Assembly (NCBI GenBank): GCA_017441925.1
Contig: JAFRUE010000002.1
Location: 1-64,000, forward strand
DNA length: 64,000 nt
Reading direction: 5' to 3'
Origin: Bacillota bacterium
GTDB lineage: Bacteria > Bacillota > Clostridia > Lachnospirales > Bianqueaceae
Shown here: one piece after another, positions 1 to 64,000 of the stretch
How positions within the stretch are numbered: position 1 is the first letter of the stretch
Layout of the letters: the number at the start of each line of letters is the position of its first letter
Notes under the pieces: generated by a model
The model's input: the letters and a program-made list of their open reading frames with translations, nothing else
What the model was told of the DNA's origin: nothing
Database searches by the model: none
Made by a program: the position numbers and the translations under genes

Positions 1-554
1 CCGAGGTGCTCGTGATAAACCGTCCGCCCGTCGACCGTGTATTTGAAGTCCGGATGGATGGTCCAGCCTCCGATCTGCGTCGGCGGAGCGTACTCAAAGC
101 GGACCCGATGCTTGTGAAGCATCTCGACGATCGCGGTCTCAGCCGTAGAACAGACGTAGATCTTATTCGTGTAATAGACGTACTGCTCCGCGTGCCGGCG
201 GCCGATGACCGCATATTTTGCGGCCAGGCGGCGCCGGTAGCCTTTAAAACGCCGGGATGCCTTCCGAATCCTCGTCAGGGCCGACCGGATCAGCTTTTTC
301 TGCTTCAGAAGTCCGATCAGAGAAGCGTCCTGTTTCAGTGAAAGATATCTGTCCCTGCGGACATGCGCCATCGTAGTCTGGACGCTGTAATAAGCCCGCT
401 GACCCCGGCGGCGTACAATAAGCGTCCCTTCCGGCAGATACGGCAGCTCAAACAAAAGCTTCGCATGCAGCGTGACCATTTCTTCGACAGGCATCGATTC
501 GATATCCAGCAGCAGATCCGGCACGACCAGTTTCGACATATCAAAATGCGGCAT
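1..554 (-). CDS. Partial hypothetical protein with nuclease-like motif (5' part only)
   Basis: An open leftward frame starts at ATG 554-552 and runs off the left edge, giving about 184 residues with no stop. The visible part begins MPHFDMSKLVVPDLLLDIES, is rich in Arg/Lys in the middle, and near the edge has an HPDF motif about 10 residues before HEHLG. A (H/R)PDF...(W/H)EHLG pattern is common in Firmicute hypothetical proteins that resemble PD-(D/E)XK nucleases; that link is from family knowledge and is tentative. It diverges from the beta-glucosidase at 722. The overlapping leftward frame at 335-646 is in a different phase and is not the gene. Confidence 0.6.
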   Translation of the reverse strand, partial: MPHFDMSKLVVPDLLLDIESMPVEEMVTLHAKLLFELPYLPEGTLIVRRRGQRAYYSVQTTMAHVRRDRYLSLKQDASLIGLLKQKKLIRSALTRIRKASRRFKGYRRRLAAKYAVIGRRHAEQYVYYTNKIYVCSTAETAIVEMLHKHRVRFEYAPPTQIGGWTIHPDFKYTVDGRTVYHEHL

Positions 555-48580: not shown

Positions 48581-48634
48581 TTGGCACGCTTTTTCACAGA
48601 AAACATTCCCCGGGTCCACGGAAAAGCGTGCCAA
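48581..48634. repeat. 54-bp hairpin repeat, copy A
   Basis: TTGGCACGCTTTT (48581-48593) pairs perfectly with AAAAGCGTGCCAA (48622-48634), a 13-bp stem. The arms recur in copies B to E. It lies upstream of larA. Confidence 0.9.
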
Positions 48635-48674: not shown

Positions 48675-48728
48675 TTGGCACGCTTTTTTTGCAAAAAGCA
48701 CCGTCCAATCCGCGAGAAAGCGTGCCAA
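48675..48728. repeat. 54-bp hairpin repeat, copy B
   Basis: TTGGCACGCTTT (48675-48686) pairs with AAAGCGTGCCAA (48717-48728). It starts 94 bp after copy A and is again 54 bp long. The 3' flanks of A and B are related (AATTTTGA...CCCTGCA). Confidence 0.9.
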
Positions 48729-63032: not shown

Positions 63033-63575
63033 TTATTCTTCGATAATGTAGGCCGCGACGATTTCACCGATGTATTCTGTGTGGGGCGAATTGTTCCGGC
63101 CGGCATACGGATCCGGCTCATCCGGCGGATACATCCTCTGCTCAATGCCCTCGATCGCGATCTCCGCAATCGGCTGCTCTTTTTTGTAAATGACACGGCA
63201 CTCGAGCGTCAGCGGGAACTCCTTGATGACCGGGACACCGTTGACAGCCGCATCCTCCAGCGTAATGGCAAGATCCTTTTCCTTATCGATCTTCCATCCC
63301 GTCAATGAACCCGCCTGTCCGAGGACGCTTTTGTCATATTCTCCCAGAGGCACACTGATCGTGAACGCCTCGTTCCTGCGCAGCAGCTGCGTCGTGAAGC
63401 GGCTCTCCCGCACATACGCTGTAAAAATGGGCTTGTTCCATTCGATCCCGAGCGACCCCCAGCCGATCGTCATCGTATTGAAACGGCCGTCCGCGAAAGT
63501 GTTGAGCAGCACTCCCTTGGCGATCGCCTTTGTAATATCGTTTGCATAGTCGAACACGTTGATTTCATGTTTCAT
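63033..63575 (-). CDS. Flavin reductase-like domain protein
   Basis: The start is ATG 63575 with AGGAGG upstream. The frame extends to 63806 but that part runs through hairpin-repeat DNA. The 180-residue split-barrel FMN protein has GVLLNTFADGRFNTMTIGWGSLGIEWNKPIFTAYV-type blocks (shown here in part as NTMTIGWGSLG) and an IGEIVAAY end. It is distinct from the paralogue at 43509. It likely transfers electrons from NAD(P)H to FMN or to a partner. Confidence 0.9.
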   Translation of the reverse strand: MKHEINVFDYANDITKAIAKGVLLNTFADGRFNTMTIGWGSLGIEWNKPIFTAYVRESRFTTQLLRRNEAFTISVPLGEYDKSVLGQAGSLTGWKIDKEKDLAITLEDAAVNGVPVIKEFPLTLECRVIYKKEQPIAEIAIEGIEQRMYPPDEPDPYAGRNNSPHTEYIGEIVAAYIIEE

Positions 63576-63728: not shown

Positions 63729-63782
63729 TTGGCACGCTTTTTCTGCGGAATGAATGAGCGTTTCCACGGAGGAGCGTGCCAA
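63729..63782. repeat. 54-bp hairpin repeat, copy C
   Basis: TTGGCACGCT (63729-63738) pairs with AGCGTGCCAA (63773-63782). An inner stem CTGCGGAA/TTCCACGG is possible. It is preceded by a duplicated GCTACAGTTT. Confidence 0.92.
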
Positions 63783-63823
63783 ACAGGGTGACGATGCCGA
63801 TCCCACTGCCTTCTCCGTTCAAA

Positions 63824-63877
63824 TTGGCACGCTTTTTCTGCGGAATGAATGCGAATATCCACTGCGGAGCGTGCCAA
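63824..63877. repeat. 54-bp hairpin repeat, copy D
   Basis: Same arms as copy C, starting exactly 95 bp after it. The inner segment differs slightly. The 41-bp spacers before and after are near-identical (CCCACTGCCTTCTCCGTTCA). Confidence 0.92.
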
Positions 63878-63918
63878 AAATGGTTACGATACTGTTCCCA
63901 CTGCCTTCTCCGTTCAAA

Positions 63919-63972
63919 TTGGCACGCTTTTTCTGCGGAATGAATGAGCGTTTCCACGGAGGAGCGTACCAA
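63919..63972. repeat. 54-bp hairpin repeat, copy E
   Basis: Starts exactly 95 bp after copy D. One base in the right arm is changed (AGCGTACCAA). The next spacer begins (TGGTTACGATACTGTTCCCA) and runs off the window, so the array probably continues. Confidence 0.9.
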
Positions 63973-64000
63973 AAATGGTTACGATACTGTTCCCACTGCC

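What the first reader, a model, noticed from the sequence alone, without database searches (positions are those of the whole stretch)
63729..64000. Tandem array of a 54-bp hairpin at an exact 95-bp period, running off the window
Three units (54-bp palindromic hairpin plus 41-bp spacer) are repeated at 95 bp. The arms TTGGCACGCT/AGCGTGCCAA are preserved, and the spacers are nearly the same, so this is not CRISPR. Length and period are rigid while the inner loop varies, which suggests selection on structure or a copying mechanism. It is not coding: 95 is not a multiple of 3. It could be a REP-like element mobilised by a RAYT-type transposase, a protein-binding array, or a set of small structured RNAs.
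Basis: seen in the sequence. Interest (0 to 1): 0.8.

Follow-up and report, generated by a model that had tools for sequence, protein, structure and literature searches.

The report
Nuclease gene with phased target-site array
The repeated 54-base unit belongs to a large set of repeat arrays, each with its own sequence, that sit beside genes of one little-known family of predicted DNA-cutting enzymes in a Clostridiales genome and its relatives; the arrays are spaced in whole turns of the DNA helix and likely serve as docking sites of the neighbouring enzyme, which would be a new kind of gene-plus-repeat module.

Summary
The array is real and has four units, not three (63729-64067, period 95 bp). 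The 54-bp unit, TTGGCACGCT-N34-AGCGTGCCAA, was found nine times in this 2.7-Mb genome (one copy 53 bp), all within 36 kb. A second species of the genus has such units at two of the same four sites, arms kept, interiors mostly changed. The array ends 172 bp before a gene without a family match (contig 64239-65150), predicted to encode a restriction-fold nuclease. Homologues also sit beside tandem dyads, with arm sequences that differ between lineages: 36 of 70 gene loci have at least three copies, against 1 of 70 matched control windows (itself a sister-lineage array). Centre-to-centre periods fall near 53, 63, 74, 85, 95 and 104 bp, whole turns of B-DNA (29 arm families, R=0.83; 0 of 200,000 random draws reached it). 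In a sister lineage of exact 47-bp sites the interior pairs little beyond chance. I read the units as dyad binding sites of the neighbouring nuclease rather than RNA hairpins: a non-HUH counterpart of RAYT/REP modules. Binding, cutting and copying are inferred. This family's units fold well as RNA, so an RNA role is not excluded.

The parts
63729..64000 (+). Dyad-site array, units 1-3 of 4 (unit 4 at contig 64014-64067). The gene proposed as its partner lies just past the window end at contig C8 64239-65150 (+).
63729..63782 (.). Unit 1, 54-bp dyad site
63824..63877 (.). Unit 2, 54-bp dyad site
63919..63972 (.). Unit 3, 54-bp dyad site, one mismatch in right arm
48581..48634 (.). Dispersed 54-bp site, locus 1 unit 1
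48675..48728 (.). Dispersed 54-bp site, locus 1 unit 2 (94 bp from unit 1)
63033..63575 (-). Flavin-reductase-like gene left of the array (Pfam Flavin_Reduct); its orthologue flanks the syntenic array in G002

Best explanation
The 54-bp units are long inverted-repeat DNA sites in an array beside a gene predicted to encode a restriction-fold nuclease, and they are likely the sites that this enzyme binds as a dimer, one subunit per arm. Neighbouring units are a whole number of helix turns apart, so bound dimers would sit on the same face of the DNA and could assemble cooperatively. The enzyme would occasionally nick or cut its sites, and repair from a neighbouring unit would then homogenise the array, change unit number and seed new sites nearby. 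Shown: the units, their rigid span, the gene-array association, arm sequences shared by close gene relatives and differing between lineages, helical spacing, local clustering, syntenic maintenance at two sites, and near-identical interiors within the larger arrays. Inferred: that this protein binds the arms, dimerises, cuts, and drives copying.
Against: No binding, cutting or expression data. 22 of 70 homologue loci show no array by this test. Arm sequence tracks the protein only for close relatives: protein pairs of at least 60% identity share arms in 14 of 16, but 40-60% pairs in 3 of 39; overall rank correlation is weak (rho 0.083, 89 of 2000 permutations reach it). In this family, units fold well as RNA (z -2.4 to -5.9 in 8 folds of 6 units) and interior G-T exceeds A-C on the gene strand (31 vs 16 in G000, 5 vs 0 in G002). 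Across arrays the interior pairs somewhat more than expected (+0.074; 29 of 38 arrays; Wilcoxon p 1.5e-5), perhaps because true arms exceed the 9 bp used. In the sister lineage positions 7-11 all lie slightly above the shuffles. Interior identity is only 0.50 in two two-unit arrays of G000, and the between-species values at the same site (0.36, 0.43) lie inside the range for different sites (0.25-0.52). Fold evidence is modest: Foldseek gives nothing at E<=0.001. Many intact sites next to an active nuclease gene would be costly unless it nicks or is restrained. The N-terminal domain has no clear fold match.
Confidence: 0.55

Rival explanations
1. The dyads are passive binding sites of the neighbouring protein, for autoregulation, chromosome anchoring or partition, and the nuclease does not drive copying; arrays change by ordinary recombination.
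For: Helical register and fixed span need only binding. Arrays are found at two syntenic sites in two species.
Against: Arrays lie upstream only in 18, downstream only in 16 and on both sides in 5 of 40 loci (one locus not classed), so no fixed promoter position. Catalytic-type residues are invariant in all 40 members. Gene plus array appears as a block in six places in G005, starting about 85-93 bp before the start codon, with no blastn similarity further upstream.
Confidence: 0.27
2. The array is transcribed into structured RNAs that work with the nuclease (guide, decoy or antitoxin RNA).
For: Strong predicted folding of this family's units, a G-T excess on the gene strand in this family and a small excess of interior pairing over 38 arrays. 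Arrays beside a nuclease gene recall TIGR arrays.
Against: No Rfam match at gathering score. No G-T over A-C excess across 38 arrays. Sister-lineage interiors pair at or near chance. Periods follow the B-DNA turn. Arrays lie on either side of the gene.
Confidence: 0.11
3. REP elements of a RAYT (Y1 HUH) transposase.
For: Same logic: gene plus cognate extragenic palindromes, in some species accumulating near the gene (PMC2817692 section 8).
Against: Neighbour gene has no Y1 domain; the single Y1_Tnp hit in G000 is on contig C10, and G002 (86% complete) has arrays but no Y1_Tnp hit.
Confidence: 0.03
4. Neutral tandem duplication of a non-functional palindrome.
For: Units within three arrays are 85-91% alike inside.
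Against: Arms and span are kept while interiors differ between species; 40 array loci with different arms show the same architecture and register.
Confidence: 0.02

Closest known systems
RAYT (REP-associated tyrosine transposase) / REP-BIME modules
   Same: A nuclease-type gene with its own cognate extragenic palindromes, in some species clustered near the gene (PMC2817692, abstract and section 8). A Bacteroidales contig here shows a Y1_Tnp gene beside a similar dyad array.
   Different: Restriction-fold nuclease (predicted) instead of HUH Y1; long dyads whose interior pairs little beyond chance in the sister lineage; head-to-tail arrays in whole helix turns.
EDxHD homing endonucleases (I-Bth0305I)
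   Same: Best structural match of the catalytic domain; dimer on a target of nearly 60 bp, to be compared with 47-54-bp dyads here.
   Different: Several intact candidate target sites beside the gene instead of one target in an allele lacking it; intron or intein context was not tested.
TIGR-Tas
   Same: Array of repeats next to an effector gene, for example in Flavonifractor plautii (passages).
   Different: No Nop domain among Pfam matches; periods of 52-106 bp instead of 36-nt RNA units; interiors within this array are nearly alike.
PDC-S68 candidate defence protein (PADLOC)
   Same: Its model matches 40 of 40 members; in the query the match is residues 163-258, the nuclease domain.
   Different: The PDC-S68 model is 1221 residues long; this gene is a 303-aa stand-alone protein with an array.
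Iteron or centromere arrays of plasmids (recalled, no call)
   Same: Tandem protein sites in helical register.
   Different: Partner here is a nuclease-type protein; no plasmid replicon was sought.

Membership tests
RAYT/REP | Y1 HUH transposase gene adjacent to the repeats | tested here: not met
   Neighbour gene has no Y1 domain; Y1_Tnp in G000 only at C10:7122, none in G002
RAYT/REP | Repeats present where the cognate gene is present | tested here: met
   TTGGCACGC sites only in 2 of 19 family genomes, the two with a close orthologue
EDxHD homing endonuclease | EDxHD-type catalytic fold and residues | tested here: inconclusive
EDxHD homing endonuclease | Gene inserted at its own target; empty allele cleaved | not tested
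   G001 has no close orthologue of the flanking flavin reductase (best 34%), so no empty site could be read
CRISPR | Unique spacers between identical repeats | tested here: not met
   The three spacers of the array are nearly alike
TIGR-Tas | Nop-domain Tas protein | tested here: not met
   No Nop domain among Pfam matches of 40 members at E<=0.01
Known structured RNA | Match to an Rfam family | tested here: not met
   0 gathering-score matches in the window; around the array only a sub-threshold snoRNA hit 110 bp past it
Structured RNA (any) | Interior pairing beyond column composition, with G-U favoured on one strand | tested here: inconclusive
   Near chance in the 47-bp lineage; small pairing excess but no G-T bias over 38 arrays; this family alone leans towards pairing
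MITE | Target-site duplication at each copy | not tested
   No empty site available; the tandem layout is unlike a MITE (inference)

The most novel reading that the evidence does not exclude
A separate, undescribed class of repeat-associated nuclease: a restriction-fold dimeric enzyme that assembles in helical register on arrays of its own long dyads and copies them locally, evolved independently of RAYT/REP, present in at least two families of one order of Clostridia, each gene lineage with its own arm sequence.
Probability: 0.5. Interest if true: 0.9.

Novelty: categorically new. Interest (0 to 1): 0.8.

Why it matters
If true, bacteria hold a second, unrelated solution to the RAYT/REP arrangement, built on a restriction-type nuclease. 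Each gene lineage would carry a natural library of its own target sites, so recognition could be read from sequence: about 29 arm families with their neighbouring genes are already available for testing. The helical spacing makes cooperative assembly directly testable, and the enzymes would be compact nucleases with long, rare targets.

Tried and rejected
RNA hairpin function: not supported for the family as a whole, kept as a rival because of the family-specific lean. Rfam: none at gathering score; one sub-threshold snoRNA match taken as chance. RAYT. Terminator role: by eye no T run follows the dyads, and the sites lie between divergent, convergent and tandem genes. Viral contigs: no exact match to one pattern. 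Genome-contig scan with one exact pattern: 11 stretches, one is RUG12817 (= G002); L031 is a RAYT-side array; the other nine I take for chance singletons from their varied spans and unrelated organisms, not examined further except as control windows. Pattern search in relatives: 2 of 58 genomes with a match. G001 as empty-site witness failed. N-terminal domain: three-stranded sheet plus long helices, no clear fold match, so its DNA-binding role is inference. Protein database search gave 3, then 9 proteins with the profile, the query itself among them; its word filter limits reach. Phylum sample: 27 of 398 genomes hit; of the 25 listed matches outside the order, 13 lie in open frames of 419-1269 aa and 12 in frames of 103-234 aa, so the stand-alone gene was seen in two families only (f1, f6). 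Literature: ten answered searches of open-access full text; I saw listings with the start of abstracts and found no description of this module there; papers opened were PMC2817692 (abstract, section 8), PMC3943268 (passages) and PMC12045711 (passages). Other PHROG matches: 3 of 40 members hit a Holliday-junction-resolvase family.

Rows dropped before counts: one search used 40 of the 46 sites (six near-duplicates left out). One search used 70 gene loci; second fetches of the same gene and loci that a single-query tblastn did not place (L077/L083, L079, L087) were left out; some loci are cut by contig ends. Its 29 periods are one main value per arm family, compiled by hand; L107 (two copies, 38 bp) was left out; the best period in the scan was 10.75 bp (R 0.834). 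One search dropped sites with N and arrays with fewer than three copies, save three. Off-phase values exist: TTGGTATAT 81.5 bp (7.76 turns), L107 38 bp, L084 124 bp. One search drew 60 control windows and skipped 7 that overlapped the array region; it used spans of 34-66 bp, searches used 30-70. On the 21 control windows from other contigs there were 2 positives, both in L031. In one search one folded stretch (L084) is shifted by one base.

Full report
OBSERVATION. TRF gives a 95-bp period, and the contig beyond the window completes a fourth unit at 64014-64067. The unit is TTGGCACGCT-N34-AGCGTGCCAA, 54 bp, with 41-bp spacers. In the window the pattern gives 5 matches at up to three mismatches against 0 in 100 shuffles.

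WHERE ELSE. In the 2.72-Mb genome (97.9% complete) two searches together found nine units at four places on contig C8, at 48.6, 63.7-64.1, 77.4 and 84.2 kb, all within 36 kb; the reversed control pattern gives none. In G002 (same genus; its contig matches that of MAG RUG12817) two units lie at the site syntenic to this array, between an 84%-identical copy of the neighbour gene and the flavin reductase, and four whole units plus a cut one lie beside the same SDR gene as our 77.4-kb pair. Interiors are 85-91% identical within three arrays and 50% within two two-unit arrays. Between species they are 36% and 43% identical at the two shared sites, inside the 25-52% range for different sites. So arms and span are kept while the interior turns over.

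ASSOCIATION. Beside the homologues I found tandem dyads with other arms. A separate sample from another family gave arrays of at least three copies at 19 of 30 loci and at least two at 22 of 30. Taken together, 36 of 70 gene loci have at least three copies and 48 of 70 at least two. Controls: matched 3.3-kb windows of C8 gave 2 of 70 with at least two and 1 of 70 with at least three, both being sister-lineage TGTCAG sites; an earlier run gave 0 of 53; windows away from the genes 0 of 22; block-shuffled loci 0 of 30; windows from unrelated contigs 2 of 21. Those two are both in L031, where the array sits beside a Y1_Tnp gene. Arms follow the gene among close relatives: 14 of 16 protein pairs at 60% identity or more share arms, 3 of 39 at 40-60%, 14 of 332 at 30-40%, 14 of 393 below 30%. 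The overall rank correlation is weak (rho 0.083, 89 of 2000 permutations).

DNA, NOT RNA, ON BALANCE. Centre-to-centre distances of 186 neighbouring dyads fall at 52-54, 62-64.5, 72-75.5, 81-87.5, 94-95 and 101-106 bp, apart from one at 38 and one at 124. With one value per arm family (29), the resultant at 10.5 bp is 0.83; none of 200,000 uniform draws reached it, and the signal stays without the 53-bp class (20 families, 0.75). A sister lineage uses TGTCAG-N35-CTGACA: 19 exact 47-bp sites in G000, 27 in G002, 1 in G011 and none in 16 other family genomes; reversed control 2 in all. In G000 such sites flank three of six genes of that lineage on both sides and one on one side; none was seen at the two that lie at contig starts. 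Over 40 distinct sites the interior pairs within two s.d. of shuffled columns at each position, positions 7-11 slightly above; the half-site shows weak base preference at 7-11 and 16-22. Over 38 arrays, G-T and A-C mismatches are about equal on the gene strand (arms 55 vs 52, interiors 321 vs 344), with a small but significant excess of interior pairing (+0.074, 29 of 38 arrays, p 1.5e-5), which may come from arms longer than the 9 bp masked. Against this, units of our own family fold well as RNA (z -2.4 to -5.9 in eight folds of six units) and lean to G-T on the gene strand (31 vs 16, near-identical units included). An RNA role for this lineage is therefore not excluded.

MOBILITY. In G005 six copies share a block that starts about 85-93 bp before the start codon and includes the gene and its array, with no blastn similarity upstream. 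Gene plus array thus behaves as a unit, at least there. Over 40 array loci, arrays lie upstream only in 18, downstream only in 16 and on both sides in 5; in the remaining one all sites fall in the called ORF, whose start looks over-extended. In all, 7 of 245 sites fall inside the called ORF, five of them in that one.

MECHANISM. Shown: dyads of fixed span, gene association, arms that differ between lineages, helical register, local clustering, presence at syntenic sites, near-identical units in the larger arrays. Inferred: a dimer of the neighbour protein binds the two arms, as I-Bth0305I dimerises on nearly 60 bp (passages of PMC3943268); dimers on successive units assemble on one face; occasional nicking or cutting followed by repair from neighbours spreads and homogenises units. 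The RAYT literature describes local accumulation near the gene for REPs of some species (PMC2817692 section 8), so the logic has precedent, but the enzyme is different.

NOVELTY. It fails the defining feature of RAYT/REP (Y1 enzyme), of TIGR-Tas (Nop domain) and of CRISPR (unique spacers). Ten searches of open-access papers showed no description of it in their listings. It works like RAYT/REP, but no tested family claims it, so I rate it categorically new, with the caveat that most subscription journals and bioRxiv were not searched.

Noticed in passing
window 3-554 (-): Second-lineage homologue of the nuclease gene, cut by the contig start, 91% identical over 184 residues to the copy at G000:C9:95.6k.
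   Followed up: partly
G000 C8:244780-247380 and 272997-273191: Gene of the TGTCAG lineage at 245136-245846 with 47-bp dyads on both sides, and a further tandem set about 28 kb away with no homologue beside it in that contig scan.
   Followed up: partly
L031:3501-5400 (Bacteroidales contig JAMPAT010000006.1): Array of GTTTGGCAC dyads, many in steps of about 84 bp, beside a Y1_Tnp (RAYT-like) gene: similar architecture with an unrelated enzyme.
   Followed up: partly
L094-L099 (G005): Several spacers and the left edge of the G005 units carry GGGACGG/CCGTCCC motifs, possibly of a second repeat family.
   Followed up: no
L119:2324-2923: Array with a three-unit higher-order repeat (225 bp); arm variants TTAGCACCC and TTGGCACCC change on both sides together.
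   Followed up: no
L088, L094, L098, L039: Contigs end in or near the arrays in several cases, so draft genomes may undercount them.
   Followed up: no
matches in open frames of 800-1270 aa: The same nuclease domain seems to occur in long proteins, in line with the match to the C-terminal part of the PDC-S68 model.
   Followed up: no
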